Source of the DNA: a virus
Reading direction: 5' to 3' (one strand)
IMG/VR virus record: IMGVR_UViG_3300004463_000262
Coordinates: 1 to 64,000 of that record
DNA: 64,000 bases
Shown here: piece after piece, positions 13,617 through 25,755 of the stretch
Position numbering within the stretch: the stretch's first letter is position 1
How the letters are laid out: every line of letters starts with the position of its first letter
Position numbers and translations under genes: made by a program
The notes under the pieces: model-generated
What the model was told of the DNA's origin: nothing
Databases searched by the model: none
What the model saw: the letters and a program-made list of their open reading frames with translations, nothing else

Positions 13617-13618
13617 CT

Positions 13619-14786: not shown

Positions 14787-14793
14787 TACCCGT

Positions 14794-14940: not shown

Positions 14941-14980
14941 CCCGAATGATCCCCTCCGTAATCATTGGAAGGTGATTACA

Positions 14981-15374: not shown

Positions 15375-15376
15375 TA

Positions 15377-15452
15377 ACGAGTGTAATCCGTAGAGTCGGC
15401 TGTGGAGGTCATGGCCCACGGGCGCAGGAGAGGTTCATTACCTAACACTCGT
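15377..15452 (+). ncRNA. Spacer RNA S7, 8-bp closing stem
   Basis: ACGAGTGT pairs perfectly with ACACTCGT around 60 nt. GTGG, AGGT, CCAC and ACCT occur in an order that allows a pseudoknot. Confidence 0.5.
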
Positions 15453-15458
15453 ATTCTT

Positions 15459-15540
15459 GGAAGATATCCGAATGGTTAGGGAACCGCTTCGAAAGCGGCT
15501 GCGTCGAAAGGCGTTGAGGGTTCGAGTCCCTTGTCTTCCG
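15459..15540 (+). tRNA. tRNA-Ser(CGA)
   Basis: Class II. Acceptor GGAAGAT/GTCTTCC, loop TTCGAAA in a CCGC/GCGG stem, discriminator G. Reads UCG. Confidence 0.9.
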
Positions 15541-15628
15541 TAATGGCAGTAGTCTATGACCTACGTAAGCTGCTGCAAGTCCATGCCTCTTGATCGTAGG
15601 CCACTGAGGGTGGACGAATCTTATCGGC

Positions 15629-15661
15629 TAGGTCATGGCGACCCTAAGAAACCATGACCTA
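15629..15661 (+). other. 10-bp hairpin before HNH gene
   Basis: TAGGTCATGG pairs with CCATGACCTA. A second TATGACCTA at about 15553 could compete for the same arm, so two alternative folds are possible. Confidence 0.4.
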
Positions 15662-15676
15662 CCAACTTAAACTAGT

Positions 15677-16009
15677 ATGGCTCTACAAGGACAAGCTAAA
15701 CTGGATTACATGCGTGATTACCAGAAGCGAAATCGTGAGAGATTACTGGTTGAGAAGAAGAAGCGTCGTGAAGAACAGCGACGTTTTATTCAAGTAGCAA
15801 AATCAAAACCATGTGCAGATTGCGGAATTCAGTATAGTACCTGGGTGATGGATTTCGATCATGTCCGTGGCGAGAAACGATACAATCTCAACAGACTAAC
15901 TAAGATGTCTGCTTCTTGGCAGACAATCATAGATGAAATTGCTAAGTGCGATGTGGTCTGTTCGAATTGTCATCGAGAACGAGAACATAAACGAAGGGGT
16001 ATCGGTTAA
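15677..16009 (+). CDS. HNH endonuclease, tRNA-linked family
   Basis: A 110-residue protein: basic N-terminal helix (KLDYMRDYQKRNRERL), zinc pair CADCG, catalytic core MDFDHVRGEK, and C-terminal CSNCHRERE completing the HNH/beta-beta-alpha-metal fold. Stand-alone HNH nucleases of this type make site-specific DNA breaks and often spread by homing. The stop codon lies 15 nt inside tRNA-Trp. Intact in every motif, so probably active. Confidence 0.8.
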   Translation: MALQGQAKLDYMRDYQKRNRERLLVEKKKRREEQRRFIQVAKSKPCADCGIQYSTWVMDFDHVRGEKRYNLNRLTKMSASWQTIIDEIAKCDVVCSNCHREREHKRRGIG

Positions 16010-16065
16010 CGGTAAACCAACGGATTCCAAACCCGTGACTGCGAGTTCGACTCTTGCTACCCCTG
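15995..16065 (+). tRNA. tRNA-Trp(CCA)
   Basis: Perfect acceptor AGGGGTA/TACCCCT, loop TTCCAAA, T arm GCGAG/CTTGC, discriminator G. One mismatch (A31-C39) in the anticodon stem. Overlaps the HNH gene end by 15 nt. Confidence 0.88.
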
Positions 16066-16163
16066 TAGGTGGGCCAATGAACGCATAGAGGGTTGAAATC
16101 ACCCCGCTCGGCAAGATATTGTTCTGGCGAAATAAATTGGTAAGAAGGATGGAGCGCCCTTCC

Positions 16164-16239
16164 GCACTGGAGGCAGACATAAGGTTAACGCGCCACTCTT
16201 ATAAGGTGGAAAGAGAAGGTTCGATTCCTTCCCGGTGCA
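16164..16239 (+). tRNA. tRNA-Ile(TAT)
   Basis: Acceptor GCACTGG/CCGGTGC, anticodon stem CCACT/GGTGG with loop CTTATAA, T arm GAAGG/CCTTC, discriminator A. Reads AUA directly; many bacteria use a lysidine-modified CAT tRNA for this. The 98 nt before it hold nothing clear. Confidence 0.9.
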
Positions 16240-16248
16240 TATCTGTGC

Positions 16249-16254
16249 TATAAT
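16249..16254 (+). promoter_or_regulatory. Extended -10 promoter, leaderless
   Basis: TG-C-TATAAT with a poor -35 inside tRNA-Ile. The ATG of the sigma-like gene begins 6 nt after the -10 box. Confidence 0.6.
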
Positions 16255-16260
16255 GCATCC

Positions 16261-16779
16261 ATGCGTGAGAAAGCATGGCAGGAGTACTTCAGATCAGGGG
16301 ACACAGAACCGCTGATCAAGGCGTATTGGGATTCTATTCAATACATGGCGTGGGATTTCAATGAGCGTAATCAGGACGATTTATTCCAGGTAGGATTGCT
16401 CGGACTAATCAAGGCGGCGAAGACCGTCGATGTCAAGCGCGTGAGATCTCTAGACGCTTGGGTGTTTTTGAACGTCCGAGGCGCTATGAGGAATCTCCGA
16501 CGATTCAAGCAGGATTACTCCCTTGATATCCTCTACGATATCACTACAGATGAGGATAGTTTGGAGCGTCGTATTGATCTGAAGATCGCATTGGAGACTA
16601 GATCTATCGAAAAGGCTAGAGGGTATCTGCAAGGATACGAGCCGATGCGAGGAAACCCAGATGACAGCATAGAGAGATATCATCGCGGCAAGATCTCACT
16701 AAGAGCCTTGTCCGATGAATTAGGAATTAGTAAGAGGCAGACTTACAAGCTTCTCGGTAAGCTGCCAGATAGTTGGTAA
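16261..16779 (+). CDS. Sigma-70-family-like transcription factor
   Basis: A 172-residue protein. Residues about 38-80 match sigma region 2 (DDLFQVGLLGLIKAAKTVD, then SLDAWVFLNVRGAMRNLRRF), the part that binds core RNA polymerase and the -10 element. A C-terminal helix-turn-helix (SLRALSDELGISKRQTYKLL) may be region 4. The ATG lies 6 nt after a TATAAT, so translation is probably leaderless. Likely redirects host RNA polymerase to phage promoters; could also be a regulator with a sigma-like fold. Confidence 0.7.
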   Translation: MREKAWQEYFRSGDTEPLIKAYWDSIQYMAWDFNERNQDDLFQVGLLGLIKAAKTVDVKRVRSLDAWVFLNVRGAMRNLRRFKQDYSLDILYDITTDEDSLERRIDLKIALETRSIEKARGYLQGYEPMRGNPDDSIERYHRGKISLRALSDELGISKRQTYKLLGKLPDSW

Positions 16780-16785
16780 AGATAC

Positions 16786-16858
16786 ACACCGGTAGCTCAG
16801 GGGTTAGAGCACCGCTCTGATACGGCGGGTGTCGGTAGTTCGATTCTACCTCGGTGTA
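16786..16858 (+). tRNA. tRNA-Ile(GAT)
   Basis: Acceptor ACACCGG/TCGGTGT, anticodon stem CCGCT/GGCGG with loop CTGATAC, T arm GGTAG/CTACC, discriminator A. Reads AUC and AUU. Confidence 0.92.
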
Positions 16859-16888
16859 CTTTCTTGTGAAGACCAAAGGAACGTCTTC

Positions 16889-16972
16889 GGTATGTGGCGA
16901 AATTGGTAGCCGCATCCGGCTGGAAACCGGACAGCACTTTGTGCTTTGCGGGTTCGACTCCCGTCATACTTA
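16889..16972 (+). tRNA. tRNA-Ser(GGA)-like, weak acceptor
   Basis: Class II with clean anticodon arm (TCCGG/CCGGA, loop CTGGAAA), variable arm and T arm, but the acceptor is weak: GTATG/CATAC plus one wobble and one mismatch. A second, poorer copy of the Ser(GGA) tRNA at 15289; may be decaying. Confidence 0.6.
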
Positions 16973-17332
16973 ACAGCGTATAGTCTTTGAGAGCAAGAAA
17001 AGATATCACTGATGATAATGCTTTGTGCGCATCGGTGAAGACTCGTGAACAACCTGCTGATTGGGTTAGAGACTAACGAAGATCAGGGAAACGACTGTAT
17101 GAAAGCGCCCACGACATGTTCGTGTTCGGCCAAGGCGGTATATACTTGCTAAGTTCTCATTAGAGGGCCGTTATTCATCCGAGGCGGCGCCTCATGACTA
17201 GAAAGCTTAAGATCCTTTCGGTGATGAGCGTAGGATGGGCCACTTAGCGAAGGATGTAATCGCGTTGGGATTTGCAGCGAAAGTTCTTGTAGTTGCTCAG
17301 CTAATTCAACCAGTAAGGCACAGCGAGTCCAA
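16973..17332 (+). other. Noncoding stretch before tmRNA
   Basis: About 360 nt without a supported gene. It contains AGTCTT/AAGACT closing pairs, a hairpin ACATG/CATGT near 17113, and ATCCT/AGGAT near 17210-17235. A structured leader or unrecognised RNA is possible. Confidence 0.35.
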
Positions 17333-17637
17333 GGGGATGTATTGGTTTCGACGTGGAACTGATGTATCAACTGCGATCCGTGTTGATCAGGCACGTAAAA
17401 GGATCAATCAAATAGAAGCAAACGCCATTAAGAGCGTATCGGCATGGCTTCGCGGTTCAGTCCGCCAGCCTGCCTTGGTTGCAGCATAACCAGGAAACCT
17501 AATATGCTGAGACAGTCGGGAAAGACCGGCACGTAAGTTGCAATATCCGTTGTAAGTTGCTACACTTTACGTAGCTATGATCGTAGTAAGTTGGTACTTA
17601 GGTTGTACGGACGCCGGTTCGAGTCCGGCCATCTCCA
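17333..17637 (+). ncRNA. ssrA: tmRNA (ssrA)
   Basis: Transfer-messenger RNA that rescues stalled ribosomes by tagging nascent proteins for proteolysis. The tRNA-like ends pair: GGGGATG at the 5' end with CATCTCC at the 3' end, followed by discriminator A. The 3' half carries a T arm GCCGG-TTCGAGT-CCGGC, and the 5' half keeps the tmRNA-typical TTGGTTTCGACG. The tag frame resumes at GCA 17418 (GCA-AAC-GCC), runs 23 codons and stops at 17487-17489 (TAA), ending ALVAA, the degradation signal type. The tag is long and basic for a tmRNA. Pseudoknot regions follow the tag. Downstream lie the genes for a small protein and S12. Phage tmRNAs are known but rare. Confidence 0.93.
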
Positions 17638-17659
17638 TATAACGTGACAGGAAGGAAAC

Positions 17660-17860
17660 ATGGCTAGATTGAGCAAGGTATATGTGGCTTTCTTCCACGA
17701 CAAGGGAAAGCGTTCTTTCGCGACAGAGAAGATTGCTGCCCGTAATTACGAAGCGGCTATGGAAGTGGCCGAGACATGGGCGATCAGCAAGTATCATGGT
17801 CGTGTAAAGGAAATCAAGATCGAGAAGTCCAAAGGAGAGATTCTACTTGGCGACGATTAA
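17660..17860 (+). CDS. Small basic protein upstream of rpsL
   Basis: A 66-residue alpha/beta protein ([20 protein letters not shown]...), basic in its first half. AGGAAGGAAA precedes the ATG. Its last 14 nt overlap the start of the S12 gene, and it follows the tmRNA by 22 nt, so it belongs to the same translation-linked transcript. No family recognised; a ribosome- or RNA-associated role is only suggested by context. Confidence 0.6.
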
Positions 17861-18239
17861 TCAGTTGGTCAGAAAGGGCAGGAGCAAGCCGAAGCCGAAG
17901 AGCAAGGCACCGGCTCTGGACGCCAATCCGCAACTACGTGGAACCGTTGTCCGCACGATGGCTCTTGATCCGAAGAAGCCTAACTCTGCGAAGCGTCATT
18001 GTTGTCGCGTCAGGCTATCGAACGGCAAAGAAGTGAACGCATACGTCCCTGGTCGTGGGATGAACATCCAGGAGCATCACTCGGTGCTCATTCGTGGTGG
18101 TCGAGTCCCGGATCTACCTGGGGTTCGCTACAAGGTCATCCGAGGCACGATGGATTGCCAGGGTGTCTCCGATGAAGAGGGTAACGTTCCTCGCAGGCAG
18201 AGTCGTTCGAAGTACGGAGTGAAGAAGAACGTCAAATGA
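17847..18239 (+). CDS. rpsL: 30S ribosomal protein uS12
   Basis: A 130-residue, full-length uS12, the decoding-centre protein that checks codon-anticodon fit. It aligns with E. coli S12 without gaps to residue 92: [17 protein letters not shown] (Lys43, Lys44 kept), QEH (Gln75-His77), [13 protein letters not shown]. Position 88, lysine in nearly all bacteria and a streptomycin-resistance/accuracy site, is proline. Asp89 (the RimO methylthiolation site in E. coli) and Pro91 are kept. Position 49-53 reads KRHCC instead of LRKVC. An 8-residue insertion (around 109-116) precedes the conserved RSKYGVKK end. The start TTG overlaps the upstream gene; GGAGA lies 9 nt before it. I infer it can replace or compete with host S12. 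Confidence 0.94.
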
Positions 18240-18415
18240 GTGAGCATTTCCATCAAGACGAAGAAGGTATCTGGCACAAGTGTTACCATAAGTCTCGTGG
18301 TTTGCTTACCAATTTGCAGTTCTGGATAGGACTCACTCTAGGTTTTCCTGTTGAGCATTTGCTCTGGGAAAAGGTTTGGCCCTTCTACCATCTCACAAGA
18401 TGGTGGGGTCTATAG
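18236..18415 (+). CDS. Small Trp-rich protein, coupled to rpsL
   Basis: A 59-residue frame whose ATG overlaps the S12 stop (ATGA). It starts [11 protein letters not shown], has a hydrophobic Trp/Leu-rich second half ([16 protein letters not shown]) that could be one membrane segment, and ends TRWWGL. Coupling to S12 suggests co-expression. Function unknown. Confidence 0.5.
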
Positions 18416-18503
18416 CAACGTACCGGGTGTCATAAAGTGGCATCAGTTCTGGAAAATCCAACCAGAGGCGGACATTAGTTTTGCTGGGCGAATGGGTAAA
18501 CTA

Positions 18504-18574
18504 GGTACCTTGGCCGAGTGGTTAGGTATGAGGCTGCAACCCTCATTATGTCGGTTCGATTCCGACAGGTACCT
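18504..18574 (+). tRNA. tRNA-Cys(GCA), copy 2
   Basis: Perfect acceptor GGTACCT/AGGTACC, anticodon stem TGAGG/CCTCA with loop CTGCAAC, discriminator T. Cleaner pairing than copy 1 at 9624. Confidence 0.93.
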
Positions 18575-18609
18575 CTGCACCACTCTATTCCTTGTTTGAA
18601 TAGGGTCTA

Positions 18610-18709
18610 TTGAACGCTCGTCCCGACGCGACTGCCATCGTTAGAGGGAGCAGCAAGCTGAGTTTGGCAGAACTAACAGGTAATATCGGTACGAATCCGA
18701 AGCGTTCAA
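18610..18709 (+). ncRNA. Spacer RNA S8, 9-bp stem and clear pseudoknot
   Basis: TTGAACGCT pairs perfectly with AGCGTTCAA. Inside, CTGCCA (18632), GTTAG (18640), TGGCAG (18665), CTAAC (18673) form a crossing H-type pseudoknot of 6 and 5 bp. ATTTTG follows the closing stem. Confidence 0.6.
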
Positions 18710-18714
18710 ATTTT

Positions 18715-18796
18715 GCCCCCTTGCTGGAATTGGCATACAGGAGCGGCTTAAACCCGCTTGCCGCAAGGCTTCAGGGTTCGAGTCCCTGAGGGGGTA
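18715..18796 (+). tRNA. tRNA-Leu(TAA)
   Basis: Class II. Acceptor GCCCCCT/AGGGGGT, anticodon stem AGCGG/CCGCT with loop CTTAAAC, variable arm GCCGCAAGGC, discriminator A. Confidence 0.93.
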
Positions 18797-18798
18797 TT

Positions 18799-18906
18799 AT
18801 GTACAAGTTATATCTCTGGATAATATCCAGAAGAATTAGATCAAGAAGATTAGAGCGACTATTACAATCCTATTTAGGAAAGAGATGGCGCTTAGGTAAG
18901 TTATAA
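18799..18906 (+). CDS. Possible 35-residue basic peptide
   Basis: ATG 18799 opens a 35-codon, Arg-rich frame (MYKLYLWIISRRIRSRRLER) between two Leu tRNAs. The tRNA 3' acceptor strand (AGGGGG) lies 4-5 nt upstream and can act as the ribosome-binding site. Short and unlike known proteins, so only tentative. Confidence 0.35.
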   Translation: MYKLYLWIISRRIRSRRLERLLQSYLGKRWRLGKL

Positions 18907-18981
18907 GCCCGCTTAGCAGAATTGGTATATGCACTGCTCTCAAAAAGCAGGATTTTCTGAGTTCGAATCTCAGAGCGGGTA
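18907..18981 (+). tRNA. tRNA-Leu(CAA) with short variable arm
   Basis: Perfect acceptor GCCCGCT/AGCGGGT close to the other Leu tRNAs, anticodon stem CTGCT/AGCAG with loop CTCAAAA, discriminator A. Unlike normal Leu tRNAs, it lacks the long variable arm (only GATTTT). Charging identity is therefore uncertain. Confidence 0.8.
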
Positions 18982-18984
18982 CTT

Positions 18985-19100
18985 ACCCACGAGTCTAGTA
19001 ACATCTACCCCTAGGGCCATGAACAGGCGAGTCCGTGGTTTACTAGTGATCGGCGGTAGAACGTCTAGGGGCGTTCGAGATGTTGTTGGTGAGCGTGGGT
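18985..19100 (+). ncRNA. Spacer RNA S9, three nested stems
   Basis: ACCCACG/CGTGGGT, ACATCT/AGATGT and CCCCTAG/CTAGGGG are nested. CTAGTAAC (about 18995) can also pair with GTTTACTAG inside the stem, giving a pseudoknot. Sits between Leu(CAA) and Lys(TTT). Confidence 0.55.
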
Positions 19101-19104
19101 TTAC

Positions 19105-19178
19105 GGCCGTATAGCTCAATCAGGCAGAGCAAGGGACTTTTAATCCTTAGGTTGTGGGTTCGATTCCTACTGCGGTCA
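19105..19178 (+). tRNA. tRNA-Lys(TTT)
   Basis: Acceptor GGCCGTA/TGCGGTC, loop CTTTTAA, T arm GTGGG/CCTAC, discriminator A. Reads AAA and AAG. Confidence 0.9.
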
Positions 19179-19236
19179 ACGAAGGGTTCATATTCTATAC
19201 TCTAATATGAACCTTATCTATTACAGAATAGATAGA

Positions 19237-19659
19237 ATGCCATATAAAGATCCTATTAGACAGAAACAAGCACAACGTGAATCCTATCTTAGGAACAAAG
19301 AGAAAGTTTTGGGAGTAAGGGTCAGGGCGATTCAAAGGAATAAAGAATATGTCTTGAATTATTTGCTGAACAATCCTTGTGTTGATTGCGGAGAAGATGA
19401 TCCAGTCGTGTTAGAGTTTGATCATCTACGAGATAAATCTTGGAATGTTTCTGCTCTAATAAAGAGAACATATTCTACTGATCGTATACAGGAAGAGATT
19501 GAGAAATGCGAAGTAGTCTGTGCAAACTGTCATCGAAGACGAGAAGCAGTTAAAGGTAATCATTTTCGCCTCATTAGCTCAGTGGACAGAGCACGAGCCT
19601 TCGACACTAGAAATTTGTTCGAATCAAACAAGAGACTATATGATGGATACGCTTGGTAG
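19237..19659 (+). CDS. HNH endonuclease, reads through a dead tRNA
   Basis: A 140-residue protein from [11 protein letters not shown] (family-like start; an ATG 30 nt upstream is possible). Motifs: [31 protein letters not shown]. After the usual HNH end the frame continues about 30 codons through a decayed tRNA-Arg and stops 10 nt inside the intact tRNA-Arg(TCG). The extra tail is probably non-functional. Same tRNA-linked family as 15677 and 23712. Confidence 0.75.
19568..19637 (+). pseudogene. Decayed tRNA-Arg(TCG)
   Basis: D arm (AGCTCAGTGGACAGAGC) and T arm (TTTG-TTCGAAT-CAAA) are clear. The acceptor pairs at only 5 of 7 positions and the anticodon stem at 3 of 5. Loop CTTCGAC gives TCG, as in the intact neighbour. 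Confidence 0.6.
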
Positions 19660-19724
19660 CTCAGTGGACAGAGCGGTGCGCTTCGAACGCACGTCAGTCG
19701 CGGGTTCGACTCCTGCCCAGGCGA
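19650..19724 (+). tRNA. tRNA-Arg(TCG)
   Basis: Acceptor CGCTTGG/CCAGGCG, anticodon stem GTGCG/CGCAC with loop CTTCGAA, T arm GCGGG/CCTGC, discriminator A. Reads CGA and CGG. The 260 nt that follow, to the next promoter, hold only a GAAGAC/GTCTT hairpin near 19930 similar to one at 16867. Confidence 0.92.
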
Positions 19725-19987
19725 TGAAGATGAGTCCTTCCAGGGGTATATGTGGTCTGATCAGGTTAGGATGTTGGCCTAGAAGTAGCCATCATTTAAA
19801 GAGTGGGCGATGGCGGCGGCGGTGCGGCGGGCCGCATCATTTGGGTGGTCGTCGGTAAGCGTATTAGCGAAAGCCTTTGAGAATCAGAAGAATGCCACGG
19901 TCGGAGGACATGGATTCTGTGCGATCTGATGAAGACCAAGGAAACGTCTTTAAGCGTGTAGTCCTTTGGTGTAATAGCACACTATCC

Positions 19988-20016
19988 TTGACAGACACTA
20001 TGTTTCGTGATACACT
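19988..20016 (+). promoter_or_regulatory. Promoter, leaderless type
   Basis: TTGACA (19988-19993), 17-nt spacer, TACACT (20011-20016). The GTG start of the next gene is 7 nt downstream. Confidence 0.75.
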
Positions 20017-20023
20017 ACATCCT

Positions 20024-20236
20024 GTGGCACGAAAAAAGAAAGAAGCCAAAAAGGAAGACGTAAAGTTTGCGAAGTACCTTCCGGGTGAAGCACGTTGGAA
20101 GGGTCGAGTGAACAAGACACGTCAAGATCGTTTGGCTATTGATGATAGGGATCGCGTACATAACGCAGATCGCGTAAGAAGTTTTTCGCAGAAGCATAAG
20201 CCAGCACGTTCGGCGGATTGGCTTAAGTTTCGCTAG
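20024..20236 (+). CDS. Small, very basic protein
   Basis: A 70-residue Lys/Arg-rich protein (ARKKKEAKKED... ending ADWLKFR). GTG 20024 is chosen because it lies 7 nt after a good -10 box, as in other leaderless genes here; an in-frame ATG at 20000 would lie inside the promoter. Probably binds nucleic acid or ribosomes; family unknown. Confidence 0.55.
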   Translation: MARKKKEAKKEDVKFAKYLPGEARWKGRVNKTRQDRLAIDDRDRVHNADRVRSFSQKHKPARSADWLKFR

Positions 20237-20261
20237 AACATTGACAATTTAGGAAGAATTA

Positions 20262-20338
20262 CAGGATGAGGGTGTGCCTGGTTCACCACTCGCCTTGGAC
20301 GCGAGACATTCTCGTGGGTTCGAATCCCACCATCCTGA
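20262..20338 (+). tRNA. tRNA-Pro(TGG)
   Basis: Perfect acceptor CAGGATG/CATCCTG, anticodon stem CTCGC/GCGAG with loop CTTGGAC, T arm GTGGG/CCCAC, discriminator A. Reads CCA and CCG. Confidence 0.93.
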
Positions 20339-20341
20339 TCG

Positions 20342-20427
20342 GGGACTGCTACTGACAAACGACCCAAGGGCTAACCCTAGCGGGCACGTTGGAAACGAGC
20401 GGCTGCATGCGCTGACCGCGCAGTTCC
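20342..20427 (+). ncRNA. Spacer RNA S10, 8-bp closing stem
   Basis: GGGACTGC pairs with GCAGTTCC (one G-U). The inner hairpin AGGG-CTA-ACCCT is clear. Lies between two Pro tRNAs. Confidence 0.5.
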
Positions 20428-20433
20428 TAACTA

Positions 20434-20508
20434 CTAGTTGTAGGATAGCTTGGTTATTCCACCTGTCTGGGGGACAGGAGATCGGGGGTTCGAATCCCTC
20501 CAACTAGA
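20434..20508 (+). tRNA. tRNA-Pro(GGG)
   Basis: Perfect acceptor CTAGTTG/CAACTAG, anticodon stem CCTGT/ACAGG with loop CTGGGGG, discriminator A. Reads CCC and CCU. Confidence 0.93.
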
Positions 20509-20511
20509 TAA

Positions 20512-20587
20512 CGGAATATGGGAAAGTCTGGTTTAATCCACTCGCTTCGGGAGCGAGAGATCGAAGGTTCGAATCCTTCTATTCCGA
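20512..20587 (+). tRNA. tRNA-Pro(CGG)
   Basis: Perfect acceptor CGGAATA/TATTCCG, anticodon stem CTCGC/GCGAG with loop TTCGGGA, T arm GAAGG/CCTTC, discriminator A. Reads CCG. Confidence 0.93.
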
Positions 20588-20642
20588 CTGTCGCGGACAC
20601 GCCGCGCAATCGAAGGTGCGTGTTATAATCAGCCCATTAAAT

Positions 20643-20795
20643 CCTGGTTGAATGGCCAGTGGGTGTAGGAACGGTGTAACCTACTAAATCCTCCGCTGAA
20701 ATGCGGGCGCTAGAGAGGTTCTTCGAGCCATTGACCTAGCGTGTGGTGGAAGCCGTACCTGCCGGATCGGCCATTGCCGGTTCGGGTGAGCCAGG
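20643..20795 (+). ncRNA. Large spacer RNA S11
   Basis: CCTGG/CCAGG and AATGGCC/GGCCATT close a 153-nt element. Inside are GTAGG/CCTAC and CGCTAG/CTAGCG stems. The largest structured spacer; class unknown. A TATAAT-like box (about 20623) lies just upstream. Confidence 0.5.
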
Positions 20796-20807
20796 TGGAG
20801 GCACGTC

Positions 20808-20879
20808 TAGTCAACGTGTCGAAAGCGTAGGGCAGCGCGGCGGTTGCTGGTGGTCGAGGGCGCAGCAACGTATTGACTA
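20808..20879 (+). ncRNA. Spacer RNA S12 element, 7-bp closing stem
   Basis: TAGTCAA pairs perfectly with TTGACTA. An inner hairpin GTTGCTG/CAGCAAC is strong. (S12 here is an element label, unrelated to the ribosomal protein.). Confidence 0.5.
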
Positions 20880-20912
20880 AATGGCCTGTCTGTTCGGAGC
20901 AGCGGGTACCAG

Positions 20913-20993
20913 CAGGGGTATGGTGTCAAAACCTGCCCCTGCTCTAGAGCGACGAGACATTGTTCAGTTACTCCTGATAGATTATCGTCGCTC
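20913..20993 (+). ncRNA. Two adjacent stem-loops (S13)
   Basis: GCAGGGG/CCCCTGC is followed by a perfect 9-bp closing stem GAGCGACGA/TCGTCGCTC (20947-20993), ending 6 nt before tRNA-Gln. Confidence 0.45.
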
Positions 20994-20998
20994 ATCTT

Positions 20999-21069
20999 TC
21001 CAAGGTACACTAATGGTAGGTGACGAGACTCTGAATCTCGTGGTGTTGGTTCGACCCCAGCCCTTGGAG
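20999..21069 (+). tRNA. tRNA-Gln(CTG)
   Basis: Acceptor TCCAAGG/CCTTGGA, anticodon stem CGAGA/TCTCG with loop CTCTGAA, T arm GTTGG/CCAGC, discriminator G. Reads CAG. Confidence 0.92.
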
Positions 21070-21181
21070 CTAAGGCACATGGTAGGTACTCTTGGCCTTT
21101 AGGAGTAATAAGCCTGCCAACTATGCTCCCTGCGCACCGCCCAATTTACAGGCGGGAGGTGGGGGAGCGCCACTCCCCGGA

Positions 21182-21245
21182 GGCGATCACTTCAAATCTG
21201 GGGAGCCAAGGCCAGGGTGCGATCACTTGTCAATCTCTGGTCGCC
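21182..21245 (+). ncRNA. Spacer RNA S14, 8-bp closing stem
   Basis: GGCGATCA pairs with TGGTCGCC. The 112 nt before it (21070-21181) carry three further hairpins, among them CCGCC/GGCGG and GGGGAG/CTCCCC. Confidence 0.45.
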
Positions 21246-21247
21246 AA

Positions 21248-21330
21248 GGGAGTATTACCTAAGTGGACAACAGGTTCCGGCTGTAACCCGGATGCTTCTA
21301 GCTTCGGAGGTTCGAATCCTTCTGCTCCCA
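21248..21330 (+). tRNA. tRNA-Tyr(GTA)
   Basis: Class II as expected for bacterial Tyr. Acceptor GGGAGTA/TGCTCCC, anticodon stem TCCGG/CCGGA with loop CTGTAAC, variable arm GCTTCTAGCTTC, discriminator A. Confidence 0.92.
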
Positions 21331-21332
21331 TC

Positions 21333-21391
21333 GTCACACAGCGGCACCAAGGCCATGCTCGCGAGCAAGCCAAGTGATCGTAACGTGTGAC
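21333..21391 (+). ncRNA. Spacer RNA S15, 7-bp closing stem
   Basis: GTCACAC pairs perfectly with GTGTGAC, with an inner GCTCGCGAGC palindrome. Confidence 0.45.
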
Positions 21392-21396
21392 ACCTT

Positions 21397-21468
21397 TCCG
21401 GGATCGTCTAATGGTAGTGACCTTGGACTTTGAATCCAATGATCTAGGTTCGAATCCTAGTCCCGGAG
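21397..21468 (+). tRNA. tRNA-Gln(TTG)
   Basis: Perfect acceptor TCCGGGA/TCCCGGA, anticodon stem TTGGA/TCCAA with loop CTTTGAA, discriminator G. Reads CAA and CAG. Confidence 0.93.
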
Positions 21469-21484
21469 CTATGGACTATCCGGT

Positions 21485-21619
21485 TCATATCACCCTAAAT
21501 CTTGCAAGTGTGATATGAGTAGTCGATCTGTCGTATTTCCATGGTTACGCGGCAGGGAGTGTGGGTTCGATTCCCTAAACCGCCATAGTGCGGGGACTGG
21601 CGAGATAGTTCCAGATTTT
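21485..21619 (+). other. Hairpin and orphan T arm
   Basis: A 9-bp hairpin TCATATCAC/GTGATATGA, then a T-arm-like TGTGGG-TTCGATT-CCC remnant (about 21560-21580), then GGGACT/AGTTCC followed by AGATTTT, a weak terminator-like hairpin just before tRNA-Asp. Confidence 0.4.
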
Positions 21620-21692
21620 GGCCCGTTAGTTCAGCGGTTAGAGCGCCTGCCTGTCGAGCAGGATGTCACCAGTTCGAATCTGGTACGGGTCG
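21620..21692 (+). tRNA. tRNA-Asp(GTC), copy 1
   Basis: Acceptor GGCCCGT/ACGGGTC, anticodon stem CCTGC/GCAGG with loop CTGTCGA, T arm ACCAG/CTGGT, discriminator G. Confidence 0.92.
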
Positions 21693-21699
21693 TATGGTG

Positions 21700-21723
21700 C
21701 GCTAGGGGGAGTACTACCCCTAG
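21700..21723 (+). other. 8-bp hairpin between Asp tRNAs
   Basis: GCTAGGGG pairs perfectly with CCCCTAGC around an 8-nt loop. Possibly a processing signal. Confidence 0.4.
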
Positions 21724-21787
21724 CAGGGAGGTAGCTCGAAAGAGAGAGTTCATTCGCCGTGGTGAAGGGCGGGATGACAACAACATT

Positions 21788-21862
21788 GGAGTGGTAGTTC
21801 AATTCGGTTAGAGCACTGCCCTGTCACGGCAGAAGTTGCGGGTTCGAGTCCCGTCCATTCCG
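21788..21862 (+). tRNA. tRNA-Asp(GTC), copy 2
   Basis: Acceptor GGAGTGG/CCATTCC, anticodon stem CTGCC/GGCAG with loop CTGTCAC, T arm GCGGG/CCCGT, discriminator G. Sequence differs from copy 1, so not a recent duplication. Confidence 0.92.
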
Positions 21863-21863
21863 T

Positions 21864-21984
21864 AGTCATAGCCCTGCACGCCACGAGGGGTAGATAGTGA
21901 GTCTGGTCGGACTCCCGTTTGAGGGTAGATACAGGCTTTAAACAGTTAGGTACCATCGCGAGTAACGGCTTTCGTTCTATGACT
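21864..21984 (+). ncRNA. Spacer RNA S16, 8-bp closing stem
   Basis: AGTCATAG pairs perfectly with CTATGACT around 105 nt, with GAGTC/GACTC inside. A further structured stretch (CACGGT/ACCGTG, GCCTG/CAGGC) continues to the next tRNA. Confidence 0.5.
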
Positions 21985-22080
21985 CAGGAGAGGGATTGCA
22001 GAGGCACGGTATATGCCCCTTCTAGGACTTCACCGTGAGTAATACGCCTGGGTTTGGCGCAAGACAGATTCAGGCTCCAT

Positions 22081-22154
22081 ATCAGAGTCGTCTAATGGTC
22101 AAGGACTTCAGACTTTCAATCTGAACAATGCGGGTTCGACTCCCGTCTCTGATA
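22081..22154 (+). tRNA. tRNA-Glu(TTC)
   Basis: Perfect acceptor ATCAGAG/CTCTGAT, anticodon stem TCAGA/TCTGA with loop CTTTCAA, T arm GCGGG/CCCGT, discriminator A. Reads GAA and GAG. Confidence 0.93.
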
Positions 22155-22157
22155 CTA

Positions 22158-22231
22158 CAGGAGTTAGCATAATTGGTTAATGCCCCAGACTGTGAATCTG
22201 GACGATTTGGGTTCGAATCCCCTGCTCCTGA
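22158..22231 (+). tRNA. tRNA-His(GTG)
   Basis: Acceptor CAGGAGT/GCTCCTG, anticodon stem CCAGA/TCTGG with loop CTGTGAA. The extra G-1 typical of His tRNA is not encoded (base before is A) and the T stem pairs at only three positions, so maturation or charging may be unusual. Confidence 0.82.
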
Positions 22232-22234
22232 TAC

Positions 22235-22309
22235 CCTTTGGTAGCTCAATGGCAGAGCACTGCGCTGTAAGGAACGCAGAGGTTGCGAGTTCGATTCTCG
22301 TCCTTAGGT
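22235..22309 (+). pseudogene. tRNA-like gene with 10-nt anticodon loop
   Basis: D arm and T arm (GCGAG-TTCGATT-CTCGT) are intact and the anticodon stem CTGCG/CGCAG is perfect, but the loop has 10 nt (CTGTAAGGAA) and the acceptor has two mismatches. Likely a decayed tRNA (GTA if read conventionally). Confidence 0.55.
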
Positions 22310-22313
22310 CTTC

Positions 22314-22385
22314 GCCGAAATAGCTCAGCGGTAGAGCACCTGTTTTGTAAGCAGGGTGTCCAGAGTTCGATTCTCTGTTTCGGCT
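22314..22385 (+). tRNA. tRNA-Thr(TGT)
   Basis: Perfect acceptor GCCGAAA/TTTCGGC, anticodon stem CCTGT/GCAGG with loop TTTGTAA, discriminator T. Reads ACA and ACG. The following 104 nt show nothing clear. Confidence 0.93.
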
Positions 22386-22489
22386 TACGCCAGTGGATCA
22401 AGTAGATAGCACGAAGCCTTATCTTCGAGTAGATCCTCCTAAGAATAATCAGTCCAGTAAAATACGTTGGGCTAAAGATTACGAGCTTC

Positions 22490-22562
22490 GCCTGCTTGGT
22501 GCTAACGGATAGCATACTGCTTTGGTATAGCAGGGGAGACAGTTCGATTCTGTCAGTGGGCT
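22490..22562 (+). tRNA. tRNA-Thr(GGT)
   Basis: Acceptor GCCTGCT/AGTGGGC, anticodon stem CTGCT/AGCAG with loop TTGGTAT, T arm GACAG/CTGTC, discriminator T. Reads ACC and ACU. Confidence 0.9.
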
Positions 22563-22602
22563 TATGGAAGGGGTCTTGGGTTCGAATCCCAAAGTTAGCT
22601 TT
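22563..22602 (+). pseudogene. 3' half of a lost tRNA
   Basis: A T arm TTGGG-TTCGAAT-CCCAA followed by GTTAGC, which could pair with GCTAAC inside the D arm of tRNA-Thr(GGT). Likely the remains of a tRNA whose 5' half was replaced. Confidence 0.5.
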
Positions 22603-22628
22603 GCGCTTATCAGACGTAGCAGACGCCG

Positions 22629-22677
22629 CACGGATAGCGTAACCGTGTCCTGATCGTGGGTCAGGTTATCTCCCACG
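22629..22677 (+). ncRNA. Spacer RNA S17, H-type pseudoknot
   Basis: CCTGA (22649), CGTGGG (22655), TCAGG (22661), CCCACG (22672) form a perfect crossing pseudoknot. A hairpin CACGG/CCGTG lies before it. Confidence 0.6.
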
Positions 22678-22681
22678 CCAC

Positions 22682-22753
22682 GCTAATCAGGTGTTTCAGG
22701 TGGCACACGTCTTTCGTAAGGACGGAGACAGAGTTCGATTCTCTGGATTAGCT
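22682..22753 (+). tRNA. tRNA-Thr(CGT)
   Basis: Perfect acceptor GCTAATC/GATTAGC, anticodon stem CGTCT/GGACG with loop TTCGTAA, T arm CAGAG/CTCTG, discriminator T. Reads ACG. Confidence 0.92.
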
Positions 22754-22756
22754 TAC

Positions 22757-22829
22757 AGACTCATAGCTCAGATGGGAGAGCGCTTCCTTGACGTGGAAGA
22801 GGTCACAGGTTCGATCCCTGTTGGGTCTA
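22757..22829 (+). tRNA. tRNA-Val(GAC)
   Basis: Acceptor AGACTCA/TGGGTCT, anticodon stem CTTCC/GGAAG with loop TTGACGT, T arm ACAGG/CCTGT, discriminator A. Reads GUC and GUU. Confidence 0.92.
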
Positions 22830-22877
22830 TTGGGTAAGACTACAGAGCCGTGTGCAGCACGGTAAGGCAGCTAGCAC

Positions 22878-22905
22878 TTGTCTTCCCACCATTTTATGGT
22901 ATACT
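22878..22905 (+). promoter_or_regulatory. Promoter, leaderless type
   Basis: TTGTCT (22878-22883), 16-nt spacer, TATACT (22900-22905). The ATG of the next gene is 7 nt downstream. Confidence 0.6.
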
Positions 22906-22912
22906 GTACTCA

Positions 22913-23170
22913 ATGTGTGAGAAGAGAGAGAAGTTGATCAAGGAGATTGCCGAGGCAATCAAGCAGGCCGACCTTGAGATGGAACGTCGTCAAGATCTGT
23001 TCCATCAAGATTGGGATTGGCAGTTTGAGCAGAGAGCCGAAGCCGCATTACGTGTAATCGAGCGCAAGGCTGACGTAACTCAAGATAGGATTCTTCCTTG
23101 CACTTGTGGTCATAATGGATATGGAGCACATAAAGAAGGGTGCGCGTTATATGAACAAAGCAGACTATGA
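22913..23170 (+). CDS. Helical protein with Cys/His end
   Basis: An 85-residue protein: a long charged helix (KLIKEIAEAIKQADLEMERR) and a C-terminal CTCGHNGYGAHKEGC, likely a metal site. ATG 22913 lies 7 nt after TATACT, arguing for a leaderless message and against the longer frame. Function unknown. Confidence 0.6.
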   Translation: MCEKREKLIKEIAEAIKQADLEMERRQDLFHQDWDWQFEQRAEAALRVIERKADVTQDRILPCTCGHNGYGAHKEGCALYEQSRL

Positions 23171-23528
23171 ATATAAAGCCGGTTATGCTTGTGGTTTTTG
23201 GGCCGACGAATTGATCGAAGCGAAAAGGAGAGGATATTCTTCTTTTCATTATAATCCTGATACTCTTCGGGGAGATCCTAAGTTTGAAATGGGTCGTGCA
23301 GATGGCATCGGGGATCGTGAACTAGTTGATGTAGAAAATGATGACTCCTTTTTCTTCGCTTTTGATCAGAGCGGTTTTCCGTGGGGGAGCCATATAGAAC
23401 AGGAGTTCAAAAGGCGAGGATATGAGTTTGAATACCTAGATATTTACGGCAAAGTCATCAAAGAACGTCCCGCTCCTATAAAATCCTTATTGCAGTCTTA
23501 TCGTCTCGTCAAACCAAAGCAGGTATAG
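23151..23528 (+). CDS. Small AGYxxG/GxxDGxGD-family protein
   Basis: A 125-residue protein starting MNKADYEYKAGYACGFWADE and carrying MGRADGIGD. These two half-motifs recur in at least eight small proteins of this phage (24913, 25772, 29644, 31260, 31468, 31634, 60442, 63831). The start overlaps the upstream gene by 20 nt; ATG 23151 is preferred over upstream codons. Cytosolic, function unknown. Confidence 0.6.
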   Translation: MNKADYEYKAGYACGFWADELIEAKRRGYSSFHYNPDTLRGDPKFEMGRADGIGDRELVDVENDDSFFFAFDQSGFPWGSHIEQEFKRRGYEFEYLDIYGKVIKERPAPIKSLLQSYRLVKPKQV

Positions 23529-23612
23529 TGGCGGCAATCGTATTTCCGCAAACCTCGTATATTACCTCCGGGGCACGTAGGGATCAGGGAAGTGGGTTGA
23601 CCTACAAACTAA

Positions 23613-23685
23613 GCAATAGTAGCTCAGACTGGTAGAGCGTCACCTTGCCAAGGTGAAAGTCGAGGGTTCGAGTCCTTCTTTGTCT
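23613..23685 (+). pseudogene. Decayed tRNA-Gly(GCC)
   Basis: Good D arm, anticodon arm (TCACC/GGTGA, loop TTGCCAA) and T arm, but the acceptor pairs at about 4 of 7 positions. An intact Gly(GCC) tRNA lies beyond the HNH gene. Confidence 0.6.
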
Positions 23686-23711
23686 GGGACTCCTACCTCG
23701 TAATAACTGAG

Positions 23712-24077
23712 ATGGCATACAAAGACAAAGAGAAGCAGAGAGAAGCATCCCTCGCCTCTTATCATCGTAGAAGAAAGAGTGATATAGAGAGAATGAGGCT
23801 CGTTAAGAATGAAGCAAAGAAGCGTAGGCGCAAAGAGAATTCTGAGTACGTCAACGCTCTGAAAGCGCAACCTTGTGTGGATTGTGGGAATTGTTATCTA
23901 CCATGTGTGATGGATTTTGATCATGTTCGTGGTGAGAAAACTAAGAACATCGCTTTCATGTTAATCAACGATACTTCTCTCGAAAAAATTAAAGAGGAAA
24001 TTGAGAAGTGCGAATTGGTATGCTCAAATTGTCATCGAATTCGCACGCATCAGCGCAGATATAGTGCCAATGGTTAG
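23712..24077 (+). CDS. HNH endonuclease, tRNA-linked family
   Basis: A 121-residue protein: family start MAYKDKEKQ, basic helix, zinc pair CVDCGN, core MDFDHVRGEK, and KCELVCSNCHRIR. All HNH motifs are intact. Its last 23 nt overlap the intact tRNA-Gly(GCC), and a decayed Gly(GCC) copy lies 27 nt upstream of its start, so it is bracketed by two copies of the same tRNA. Confidence 0.82.
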   Translation: MAYKDKEKQREASLASYHRRRKSDIERMRLVKNEAKKRRRKENSEYVNALKAQPCVDCGNCYLPCVMDFDHVRGEKTKNIAFMLINDTSLEKIKEEIEKCELVCSNCHRIRTHQRRYSANG

Positions 24078-24127
24078 CATACCAGATTGCCATTCTGGTG
24101 GTACGAGTTCGAATCTCGTTATCTGCT
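24055..24127 (+). tRNA. tRNA-Gly(GCC)
   Basis: Perfect acceptor GCAGATA/TATCTGC, anticodon stem CCAGA/TCTGG with loop TTGCCAT, T arm ACGAG/CTCGT, discriminator T. Reads GGC and GGU. Its 5' end encodes the HNH C-terminus. Confidence 0.93.
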
Positions 24128-24128
24128 T

Positions 24129-24221
24129 GAAGACTATTGATAGAGACTAGAAACTCTAGGGTGCAAGTCCCTGGCTCTCCCATAGCTCTGTGTAGGTTAT
24201 GGGTACACAGTGATAGTCTTC
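24129..24221 (+). ncRNA. Spacer RNA S18, 8-bp stem and perfect pseudoknot
   Basis: GAAGACTA pairs perfectly with TAGTCTTC. Inside, CCCATA (24179), CTGTGTA (24188), TATGGG (24198), TACACAG (24204) form crossing helices of 6 and 7 bp. A T-arm-like AGGG-TGCAAGT-CCCT also lies inside. The clearest member of the spacer set. Confidence 0.65.
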
Positions 24222-24225
24222 TCCA

Positions 24226-24298
24226 GCACCTATGATGTTAATGGTTAGCATCTCAGACTTCCAATCTGATCGTGTCGGTTCGAGTCCGACTAGGTGCT
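24226..24298 (+). tRNA. tRNA-Gly(TCC)
   Basis: Perfect acceptor GCACCTA/TAGGTGC, anticodon stem TCAGA/TCTGA with loop CTTCCAA, T arm GTCGG/CCGAC, discriminator T. Reads GGA and GGG. Confidence 0.93.
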
Positions 24299-24304
24299 CT
24301 GAAC

Positions 24305-24377
24305 GTCCTAGTAGCTCAGTGGATAGAGTGCCACCCTGCGAAGGTGGAAGTCGTTGGTTCGAGTCCAACTTAGGACG
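24305..24377 (+). tRNA. tRNA-Arg(GCG)
   Basis: Acceptor GTCCTAG/TTAGGAC, anticodon stem CCACC/GGTGG with loop CTGCGAA, T arm GTTGG/CCAAC, discriminator G. Most bacteria read CGC/CGU with an inosine-modified ACG tRNA; a G34 version needs no deaminase. Confidence 0.9.
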
Positions 24378-24704
24378 CTAGAACAGGGACATACGCAGCA
24401 CCCGTTGATCCATGCGTCGTGGGTAACTCCCCGGCCGAAAATTGGGCGTCTTCACGGCGCAGAGATGAGCGGGTGTTGAGGAACTTCAGGACTACTGAAC
24501 CGCGTGGTGCCAAGAGAGCGCGGGGAGCGTTTAGACGATGAGGGAGATGGCCGGTTAGCCGGTAATGCCCGTAATGATGTGTAGGGCTGATAGCGTGAGC
24601 GGGAGCCATCGCGTACCTCTAAGCGGACGATATGTAGCGATTCCAAGTTCGTCCTGAGCACACAGGACAAGGTAGGGAGCAGCCACTTTATCGAGACGGG
24701 TGGC
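24378..24704 (+). other. GC-rich structured noncoding stretch
   Basis: No supported gene. Several hairpins are visible: GGCCGG...CCGG near 24550, GTCCTG/CAGGAC near 24650-24667, GCCAC/GTGGC near 24682. Probably one or more further structured RNAs. Confidence 0.4.
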
Positions 24705-24768
24705 CATTGGTCGAAAGCCCTTCAACGGACGTGAGGGTAGAGGGCTGAAAACCCCACGCTGACCAGTG
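24705..24768 (+). ncRNA. Spacer RNA S19, 8-bp stem and pseudoknot
   Basis: CATTGGTC pairs with GACCAGTG. Inside, AGCCCT (24716), CGTGAGGGT (24730), AGGGCT (24741), ACCCCACG (24751) form a crossing pseudoknot with one bulge. Confidence 0.6.
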
Positions 24769-24793
24769 AGATAGATGTATGTCATCTTGTTAC

Positions 24794-24822
24794 TTGACAA
24801 GACACAGAATCCTGGGTATACT
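24794..24822 (+). promoter_or_regulatory. Strong promoter before tRNA-Met
   Basis: TTGACA (24794-24799), 17-nt spacer, TATACT (24817-24822). Would transcribe tRNA-Met, three small genes, tRNA-Arg(CCT) and the initiator tRNA to the terminator at 25723. Confidence 0.85.
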
Positions 24823-24837
24823 GTTCTAGATACACAA

Positions 24838-24910
24838 ACCTCCGTAGCTCAGCGGTCAGAGCGCTGGCCTCATAAGCCAGATGTCGTCGGTTCGAATCCA
24901 ACCGGAGGGA
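24838..24910 (+). tRNA. tRNA-Met(CAT), elongator type
   Basis: Acceptor CCTCCG/CGGAGG with a mismatched first pair, anticodon stem CTGGC/GCCAG with loop CTCATAA, T arm GTCGG/CCAAC, discriminator A. D stem GCTC/GAGC is elongator-like. A lysidine-type Ile tRNA cannot be excluded. Confidence 0.85.
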
Positions 24911-24912
24911 AT

Positions 24913-25131
24913 ATGAATCAAATTGATAAGAACAAAGTCGTAGAGGTTCCGCTTAGTTCTAAGTACCTTACTCATGATGGATTGTATATGGCAGGCTATC
25001 ATTGGGGTCGGCATATTAGAAGTCCAGAAAGCGCCCCTAGTGGTGCGCCGGTAGCCTTTCTTCAAGGTGTTCGGGATGGATATGGAGACGGCTTGGAAGA
25101 AATCCGAGAAAGGATGAGATCAGGAACATGA
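24913..25131 (+). CDS. Small AGYxxG-family protein
   Basis: A 72-residue protein with GLYMAGYHWGRHI and a later GVRDGYGDGLEE, the paired motif seen in the phage's small-protein family. ATG 24913 follows GGAGG by 4 nt, and that GGAGG is the 3' acceptor strand of the tRNA-Met gene. The next gene starts in its TGA (ATGA). Function unknown. Confidence 0.6.
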   Translation: MNQIDKNKVVEVPLSSKYLTHDGLYMAGYHWGRHIRSPESAPSGAPVAFLQGVRDGYGDGLEEIRERMRSGT

Positions 25132-25331
25132 AGAAGATAGATCAGAAAGCCGAAAAGGCTGAGCGTAACAAGATCTACGCGCTCAAGTTCAAGAAGAAGG
25201 AAAAGGAGAAGAAGGGCAAGCGCGAGGTTTCTCGTTTCGCCAATTGGTGCAGAACCGAGGGTCATGATCCTAGTTGTAGTTGCGCCTATCCTTCTCGCGA
25301 AGAAGTCATTGAGGCTTCACGCAGAAAGTAA
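25128..25331 (+). CDS. Small lysine-rich protein
   Basis: A 67-residue protein with a strongly basic first half (KAEKAERNKIYALKFKKKEK) and a C-terminal CRTEGHDPSCSC cluster that may bind metal. ATGA overlap with the upstream gene; the stop is directly followed by tRNA-Arg(CCT). Possibly RNA-binding; unknown. Confidence 0.55.
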   Translation: MKKIDQKAEKAERNKIYALKFKKKEKEKKGKREVSRFANWCRTEGHDPSCSCAYPSREEVIEASRRK

Positions 25332-25404
25332 TTCCCTGTAGCTCAGTGGAAAGAGCATCTGTTTCCTAAACAGAGTGTCGGAGGTTCGATTCCTCTCAGG
25401 GAAG
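25332..25404 (+). tRNA. tRNA-Arg(CCT)
   Basis: Perfect acceptor TTCCCTG/CAGGGAA, anticodon stem TCTGT/ACAGA with loop TTCCTAA, T arm GGAGG/CCTCT, discriminator G. Reads AGG. Confidence 0.93.
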
Positions 25405-25405: not shown

Positions 25406-25651
25406 ATGAAAAGAAAGCTTAAGTGTGGTACTTGTGGTACCACCAAAAATAAAGCAACAGGCAAAACGCTCTACATGTTTGGTGACTCGCCTGCATCTAT
25501 GATGATCCTCCCTGATTCTATCGAGTGTTGGGATTGTGGTGAGGCTCGTCGTGAGGCAGAAGAAAAGAAAAAGCAGGAGCGCAACAAGAGCCTGGTTGAT
25601 AAGTTCGCTGTCGAAAGCGATAAACTAGCACGCGGAGTAGAGCACTGGTAG
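25406..25651 (+). CDS. Zinc-ribbon protein ending inside tRNA-fMet
   Basis: An 81-residue protein with CGTCGTTK at residue 8 and CWDCGE near residue 45, a zinc-ribbon pair, then a charged helix. The AGGGAAG of the tRNA-Arg(CCT) 3' end serves as ribosome-binding site 3-4 nt before the ATG. The final 21 nt lie in the initiator tRNA gene. Function unknown. Confidence 0.6.
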   Translation: MKRKLKCGTCGTTKNKATGKTLYMFGDSPASMMILPDSIECWDCGEARREAEEKKKQERNKSLVDKFAVESDKLARGVEHW

Positions 25652-25702
25652 CTCGTCAGCCTCATAAGCTGAAGGTAGCTGGTTCAATTCCAGCCTCCGC
25701 TA
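25631..25702 (+). tRNA. Initiator tRNA-fMet(CAT)
   Basis: Closely resembles bacterial initiator tRNA: unpaired 1-72 (C1, T72), acceptor GCGGAG/CTCCGC, D stem GAGC/GCTC with the initiator-type A11-U24 pair, loop CTCATAA, then GAAGGT and T arm GCTGG-TTCAATT-CCAGC. The three consecutive G-C pairs normally found at 29-31/39-41 are replaced by A-U, G-C, C-G. Those pairs help P-site selection with IF-3, so this tRNA may start translation under altered rules. No CCA encoded. Last tRNA of the array. Confidence 0.88.
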
Positions 25703-25722
25703 TAGAGTAAAGTGAAGGTTCA

Positions 25723-25755
25723 AGCCCGTGGCGTTCTTGCGCCACGGGCTTTTTC
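25723..25755 (+). terminator. Rho-independent terminator of tRNA array
   Basis: GCCCGTGGCG-TTCTT-GCGCCACGGGC followed by TTTTT, a textbook stem and T run. It closes the array after the initiator tRNA. Confidence 0.92.

What the first reader, a model, noticed from the sequence alone, without database searches (positions are those of the whole stretch)
25631..25702. Phage initiator tRNA with altered anticodon stem
The gene has the 1-72 mismatch, A11-U24 pair, CAT anticodon and initiator-like T arm. Two of the three consecutive G-C pairs used in P-site selection are changed. With phage IF-1 and S12 this suggests a phage-specific initiation system. Frequent TTG starts and leaderless messages in this phage fit that idea.
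Basis: inference. Interest (0 to 1): 0.88.

Follow-up and report, generated by a model that had tools for sequence, protein, structure and literature searches.

The report
Phage initiator tRNA with altered stem
A bacterial virus carries its own start-of-protein tRNA in which two of three "universal" stem base pairs are changed; the same change recurs in many unrelated viruses but is almost absent from bacteria, so viruses appear to run, or protect, translation initiation with their own variant of this RNA.

Summary
The tRNA at 25631-25702 is real. It has initiator features (C1xU72 mismatch, G2-C71, C3-G70, A11-U24, CAU anticodon). Its "three G-C" anticodon stem is altered to A29-U41 / G30-C40 / C31-G39, so only the middle pair survives. 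This is not a local accident. A sister phage has the identical anticodon arm inside a diverged tRNA whose stems are kept by four compensatory changes, and a second sister has A29-U41 / G30-C40 / U31-A39. In a viral sample chosen without regard to the stem, G30-C40 is kept in 102/102 distinct initiator tRNAs, while 31-39 is altered in 16/102. Among 398 Pseudomonadota genomes only one (besides the seed) has an altered 31-39 pair. There they are extra copies where checked, usually beside phage genes. Best reading: a working initiator within a full replacement tRNA set, using host formylase and IF2. The 31-39 change may evade tRNases such as VapC, which cuts tRNA-fMet at A38/C39; this part is untested.

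The parts
25631..25703 (+). Initiator-type tRNA gene (CAU), positions 1-73; stem 29-31/39-41 = A-U, G-C, C-G
   Evidence: ARAGORN; Rfam; sequence; fold; covariation across 12 phage initiators
25656..25672 (+). Anticodon arm TCAGC CTCATAA GCTGA with altered 29-41 and 31-39 pairs; identical in L089
   Evidence: alignment
25722..25755 (+). Terminator-like hairpin plus T run directly after the tRNA, ending the tRNA cluster
   Evidence: Folds at -26.9 kcal/mol; the consensus scan did not list it
24838..24910 (+). Second CAU tRNA (elongator-like, C11-G24 D stem), so the phage has separate initiator and non-initiator CAU tRNAs
   Evidence: ARAGORN; sequence
9264..25404 (+). Remainder of the tRNA cluster: about 44 tRNAs covering all 20 amino acids, plus a tmRNA at 17333-17640
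8688..8915 (+). Translation initiation factor IF-1 (likely start TTG at 8700, behind GGAGG)
   Evidence: PF01176
17847..18239 (+). Ribosomal protein uS12 (TTG start behind AAGGAG)
   Evidence: PF00164
26037..27416 (+). RtcB RNA ligase, a tRNA-repair type enzyme, next gene but one after the initiator tRNA
   Evidence: PF01139 E 1e-56; no homologue reported in the G001/G004 pieces searched

Best explanation
It is a phage-encoded initiator tRNA and part of a full replacement tRNA set (all 20 amino acids plus tmRNA). It is most likely charged by host MetRS, formylated by host Fmt (1-72 mismatch, G2-C71, C3-G70, A11-U24) and placed in the P site by host IF2. It keeps the one anticodon-stem pair that 16S A1339 grips best (G30-C40) and gives up G29-C41 and G31-C39. 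Shown: initiator anatomy, conservation of the altered stem in sister phages, invariance of G30-C40 in viral initiators, and strong enrichment of 31-39 changes in viruses over bacteria. Inferred: that it is expressed and initiates, and that its purpose is to keep initiation running when the host initiator tRNA is damaged or limiting. The most plausible reason for the 31-39 change is that position 39 (C to G here, another base in other phages) borders the A38/C39 bond cut by tRNA-fMet-specific VapC toxins. I give that last sub-claim about 0.35; plain relaxation of the two outer pairs is its main competitor.
For: Anatomy. Sister L089/G004 has the identical 17-nt anticodon arm but differs in acceptor and T stems through compensatory double changes (6-67, 7-66, 50-64, 51-63). 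Sister L083/G001 has C1xU72, A11-U24, A29-U41, G30-C40, U31-A39. Twelve phage initiators: 98.8% of cells paired and 41 both-side changes, against 11.2 in shuffles. Viral sample selected without regard to the stem: 30-40 is G-C in 102/102 distinct sequences, 31-39 altered in 16/102. Bacteria: 330/398 Pseudomonadota genomes match the general pattern, and altered 31-39 occurs in 2/398, one being the seed; Fisher p about 5e-10. C31-G39: at least 120 stretches in IMG/VR, 105 distinct among 119 parsed, against 52 in about 85,000 genomes. 9/10 tested neighbours of those match phage families, and 3/3 genomes checked also hold an ordinary initiator. VapC cuts tRNA-fMet between A38 and C39 (PMC4105405); phage tRNAs are proposed to resist host tRNases (PMC10264068). 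16S A1339/G1338 contact 30-40 and 29-41, and a 30-40 swap costs about 20-fold in vivo (PMC11497404).
Against: No expression, charging, formylation or ribosome data. The host is unknown, so no host VapC or other initiator tRNase could be examined. The anticodon loop itself (CTCATAA) is unchanged, and VapC's recognition requirements beyond the cut site are not known here. Other 31-39 pairs (U-G, U-A, A-U) also occur in viral initiators, as relaxed constraint would also give. A complete 3GC mutant (UA/CG/AU) is charged and formylated but inactive in initiation in E. coli (PMC10486304), so reduced activity is possible.
Confidence: 0.62

Rival explanations
1. Relaxed constraint: phage initiators are auxiliary copies, so only the pair the ribosome cannot do without (30-40) is held, and 29-41 and 31-39 drift among Watson-Crick and wobble pairs without adaptive meaning.
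For: 29-41 is varied in viral contigs (G-C, A-U, U-A) and A-U is already common in alphaproteobacterial hosts. Several different 31-39 pairs occur.
Against: C31-G39 makes up half of the 31-39 changes (8/16) and A29-U41 is its usual partner (75/105 distinct), seen in Rhizobium, Agrobacterium, Streptomyces, Mycobacterium, Microbacterium and Vibrio phages (those hits are query-biased). The whole anticodon arm is frozen between window and L089 while other stems changed.
Confidence: 0.35
2. Phage-specific initiation system: the altered tRNA works with phage IF-1 and S12 on phage mRNAs with TTG or leaderless starts.
For: IF-1, S12 and the tRNA are all present in this window. The anticodon stem is the element that P-site and IF3 inspection read.
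Against: Relatives carry the altered stem without IF-1 (G001) or without detectable IF-1 and S12 (G004 fragment). The stem recurs in unrelated phages. TTG is 5/55 and most starts are SD-led. No Fmt or deformylase was found.
Confidence: 0.1
3. Dual-use CAU tRNA: losing the outer G-C pairs lets the phage initiator also serve in elongation.
For: Many viral C31-G39 initiators have weak 1-72 pairs (U-A, A-U) rather than mismatches. The C31-G39 arm resembles the phage's other CAU tRNA, GC CTCATAA GC.
Against: The window tRNA and both sisters keep a C1xU72 mismatch, and the window carries a separate CAU tRNA at 24838.
Confidence: 0.1
4. Decayed or captured tRNA without function (tRNA-Ile2, pseudogene, or an attachment-site copy).
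For: It lies at the end of the tRNA cluster and overlaps the 3' end of an ORF.
Against: Perfect cloverleaf, a full set of formylation determinants, and the same gene order with compensatory changes in L089.
Confidence: 0.04

Closest known systems
Bacterial initiator tRNA (tRNA-fMet, 3GC class)
   Same: 1-72 mismatch, G2-C71, C3-G70, A11-U24, CAU anticodon, CTCATAA loop, G30-C40
   Different: G29-C41 is A29-U41 and G31-C39 is C31-G39; CCA not encoded; C15/A48 and short D loop
AU/GC/GC initiators of alphaproteobacteria, seen here in the Pseudomonadota scan (mycoplasma variants known to me from memory only)
   Same: A29-U41 with G30-C40 kept
   Different: Those keep G31-C39; the window also changes 31-39
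Phage-encoded tRNA-fMet genes (for example Streptomyces phage Wakanda, Mycobacterium phage Phabba, Caulobacter phage CcrSC, Sinorhizobium phiLM21-like prophages)
   Same: Phage-borne initiator-type CAU tRNA; Wakanda and Phabba carry the same A-U/G-C/C-G stem
   Different: Different phage lineages; CcrSC keeps G31-C39
Phage tRNAs proposed to resist anticodon nucleases (PMC10264068)
   Same: Large phage tRNA set with departures next to a known toxin cut site
   Different: That work looks at anticodon-loop changes and treats tRNA-fMet as generally avoided by phages of VapC hosts; here the change is in the stem at position 39

Membership tests
Initiator tRNA (tRNA-fMet) | No Watson-Crick pair at 1-72 | tested here: met
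   C1xU72; same in L089 and L083
Initiator tRNA (tRNA-fMet) | Formylation determinants G2-C71, C3-G70, A11-U24 | tested here: met
   determinants as listed in PMC7949028
Initiator tRNA (tRNA-fMet) | CAU anticodon in a CTCATAA loop | tested here: met
Initiator tRNA (tRNA-fMet) | Three consecutive G-C pairs 29-41, 30-40, 31-39 | tested here: not met
   Only 30-40 is G-C. It is therefore filed as a variant that works like an initiator, not as a 3GC-class member
Initiator tRNA (tRNA-fMet) | Formylated and used in the P site in vivo | not testable with these tools
   needs tRNA-seq, acid gels and initiation reporters
Phage-specific initiation system (IF-1 + S12 + tRNA) | The parts occur together across relatives | tested here: not met
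   Altered tRNA in G001 without IF-1; in G004 without detectable IF-1 or S12
tRNase-resistant phage tRNA | Change at or next to a known toxin cut site | tested here: met
   Position 39 is G, not C; VapC cuts between A38 and C39 (PMC4105405)
tRNase-resistant phage tRNA | Host carries the cognate tRNase and the phage tRNA resists it | not testable with these tools
   host unknown; needs a biochemical assay

The most novel reading that the evidence does not exclude
Viruses of bacteria have recurrently evolved a distinct class of initiator tRNA (A29-U41 / G30-C40 / C31-G39 and kin) that breaks the supposedly universal 3GC rule while holding G30-C40, because it escapes host toxins that destroy the ordinary initiator tRNA.
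Probability: 0.3. Interest if true: 0.85.

Novelty: new variant of a known kind. Interest (0 to 1): 0.6.

Why it matters
A review states that three consecutive G-C pairs are found in all initiator tRNAs of all kingdoms (PMC4611024). Viral initiators violate this at 31-39 about one time in six and never at 30-40 in the 102-sequence sample here. They are a natural mutagenesis experiment on which pairs the ribosome really needs, and they point to a concrete, cheaply testable reason (initiator-tRNA-cleaving toxins) why phages carry their own initiator.

Tried and rejected
(1) Megablast of 20000-32000 against INPHARED found no related phage. (2) IF-1 + S12 + tRNA as a linked system was rejected on co-occurrence. 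(3) Phage formylase or deformylase: none found. (4) A strict search for CGCGG acceptor plus the A-U/G-C/C-G stem in about 85,000 genomes gave 0; the looser search gave 52, most tested ones beside phage genes. (5) The first phage sample was found with the window tRNA as query and is therefore biased towards the same stem; the unbiased estimate uses patterns with the stem left open. (6) S12 hits in the phages collection look like bacterial contigs filed as phages. (7) Key primary papers (Mandal 1996; the mycoplasma initiator paper) are not held. (8) G002's CAU tRNA has an A1-U72 pair and a poor D arm and was left out of the argument.

Full report
What is there. The window is bases 1-64000 of a 72,439-base IMG/VR virus record with no near relative in INPHARED. 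At 25631-25702 lies a tRNA gene called Met(CAT) by ARAGORN and full-length by Rfam (61.8 bits). Read directly it has C1xU72, G2-C71, C3-G70, A11-U24, anticodon loop CTCATAA and A73. The formylation determinants listed in PMC7949028 are all present. The anticodon stem is A29-U41, G30-C40, C31-G39: the outer two of the three G-C pairs are changed. The gene is the last of a tRNA cluster of about 45 genes covering all 20 amino acids plus tmRNA, and a strong hairpin with a T run follows it.

Is it chance or decay? No. Relative G004 (L089, ribonucleotide reductase 77% identical) has an initiator in the same place, after tRNA-Arg(CCT). Its 17-nt anticodon arm is identical, while acceptor pairs 6-67 and 7-66 and T-stem pairs 50-64 and 51-63 differ by compensatory double changes. 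Relative G001 (L083, 158 kb) has a CAU tRNA with C1xU72, A11-U24 and A29-U41 / G30-C40 / U31-A39 (the D arm is less regular, A10xA25). Over 12 phage initiators 98.8% of helix cells pair, with 41 both-side changes against 11.2 in shuffles; pair 30-40 never varies.

How common is it? Sampling viral contigs with the stem left open (102 distinct sequences parsed), 30-40 is G-C in 102/102, 31-39 is altered in 16/102 (8 C-G), and 29-41 is A-U or U-A more often than G-C. A second open-stem sample restricted to CGCGG acceptors (92 distinct) gives 90/92 G-C at 30-40. Some of these contigs carry host tRNAs at prophage edges, so the viral rate of change is probably underestimated. In 398 Pseudomonadota genomes 330 match the general pattern and only 2 have an altered 31-39, one being the seed genome; Fisher p about 5e-10. 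This baseline covers one phylum and compares genomes with sequences. Of ten neighbours of the bacterial copies tested, nine match PHROG families, including terminase, tail sheath, head closure and integrase, and in 3/3 genomes checked an ordinary initiator is present as well. C31-G39 initiators are therefore essentially a phage and prophage feature, seen in annotated phages of Rhizobium, Agrobacterium, Streptomyces, Mycobacterium, Microbacterium and Vibrio (query-biased list).

How it most likely works. The ribosome grips the P-site tRNA through A1339 on pair 30-40 and G1338 on 29-41; swapping 30-40 alone costs about 20-fold in vivo (PMC11497404). Replacing all three pairs leaves charging and formylation intact but abolishes initiation (PMC10486304). 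The window tRNA keeps exactly the 30-40 pair. I infer that host MetRS, Fmt and IF2 handle it and that it initiates on host ribosomes. No Fmt or deformylase was found in the related records. The full tRNA set, the tmRNA and an RtcB RNA ligase next gene but one fit a phage that replaces or repairs the tRNA pool. Enteric VapC cuts tRNA-fMet between A38 and C39 (PMC4105405), and phage tRNAs have been proposed to escape such enzymes (PMC10264068). In the window and in viral 31-39 variants with C-G, U-G, U-A or A-U pairs, position 39 is no longer C. This would explain why phages, but not hosts, change this pair. It is untested; relaxed constraint is the main rival. RtcB is not expected to mend VapC cuts (my own knowledge: PIN nucleases leave 3'-OH ends), and no RtcB homologue appeared in the pieces of the two sisters searched.

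The proposed initiation system. IF-1 and S12 are genuine. But G001 lacks IF-1, and in the G004 fragment neither was found, while both carry the altered initiator. Start-codon evidence is weak: 5 TTG of 55, 38 of 55 with SD-like sequence (start assignment is heuristic and favours ATG and SD). IF-1 and S12 have SD-led TTG starts. A minority of starts may be leaderless.

Verdict. A functional-looking phage initiator tRNA, a new variant of a known kind, and the entry point to a broader pattern: viral initiators break the 3GC rule at its outer pairs and hold the middle one. I found no paper describing this pattern, but the library is partial.

Noticed in passing
17847-18239; L083 10001-10402: A phage-borne ribosomal protein uS12 gene, SD-led, conserved in a second related phage (66% identical). 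Annotated-phage hits appear to be bacterial contamination, and the main text of Mizuno 2019 on viral ribosomal proteins does not mention S12.
   Followed up: partly
17333-17640: Phage tmRNA (Rfam 114 bits) within the tRNA cluster; also present in G001 and, by ARAGORN, in G002.
   Followed up: no
22235-22310: tRNA-like gene with an enlarged anticodon loop (ARAGORN 4-base anticodon 'taag') and mismatches in the acceptor stem.
   Followed up: no
23613-23684 and 19568-19637: Two tRNA-like genes scored by Rfam but not called by ARAGORN; the first has an apparent Gly(GCC) loop.
   Followed up: no
16261, 29364, 58018: TATAAT, TAAAAT and TATCAT boxes exactly 6 nt before the start codon, as in leaderless mRNAs; the first gene is a sigma-70 region 2 protein.
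   Followed up: partly
26037-27416: RtcB RNA ligase just downstream of the initiator tRNA; no homologue reported in the pieces of the two closest relatives searched, but about 60% identical in two other large phages.
   Followed up: partly
L180 (IMGVR_UViG_3300025900_000193), 12234-base locus: A rare viral initiator-like tRNA with C30-G40 while G29-C41 and G31-C39 are kept, the same swap as the laboratory M1 mutant.
   Followed up: no
60527-61618: IMP dehydrogenase / GMP reductase gene in the phage (PF00478 E 6e-87).
   Followed up: no
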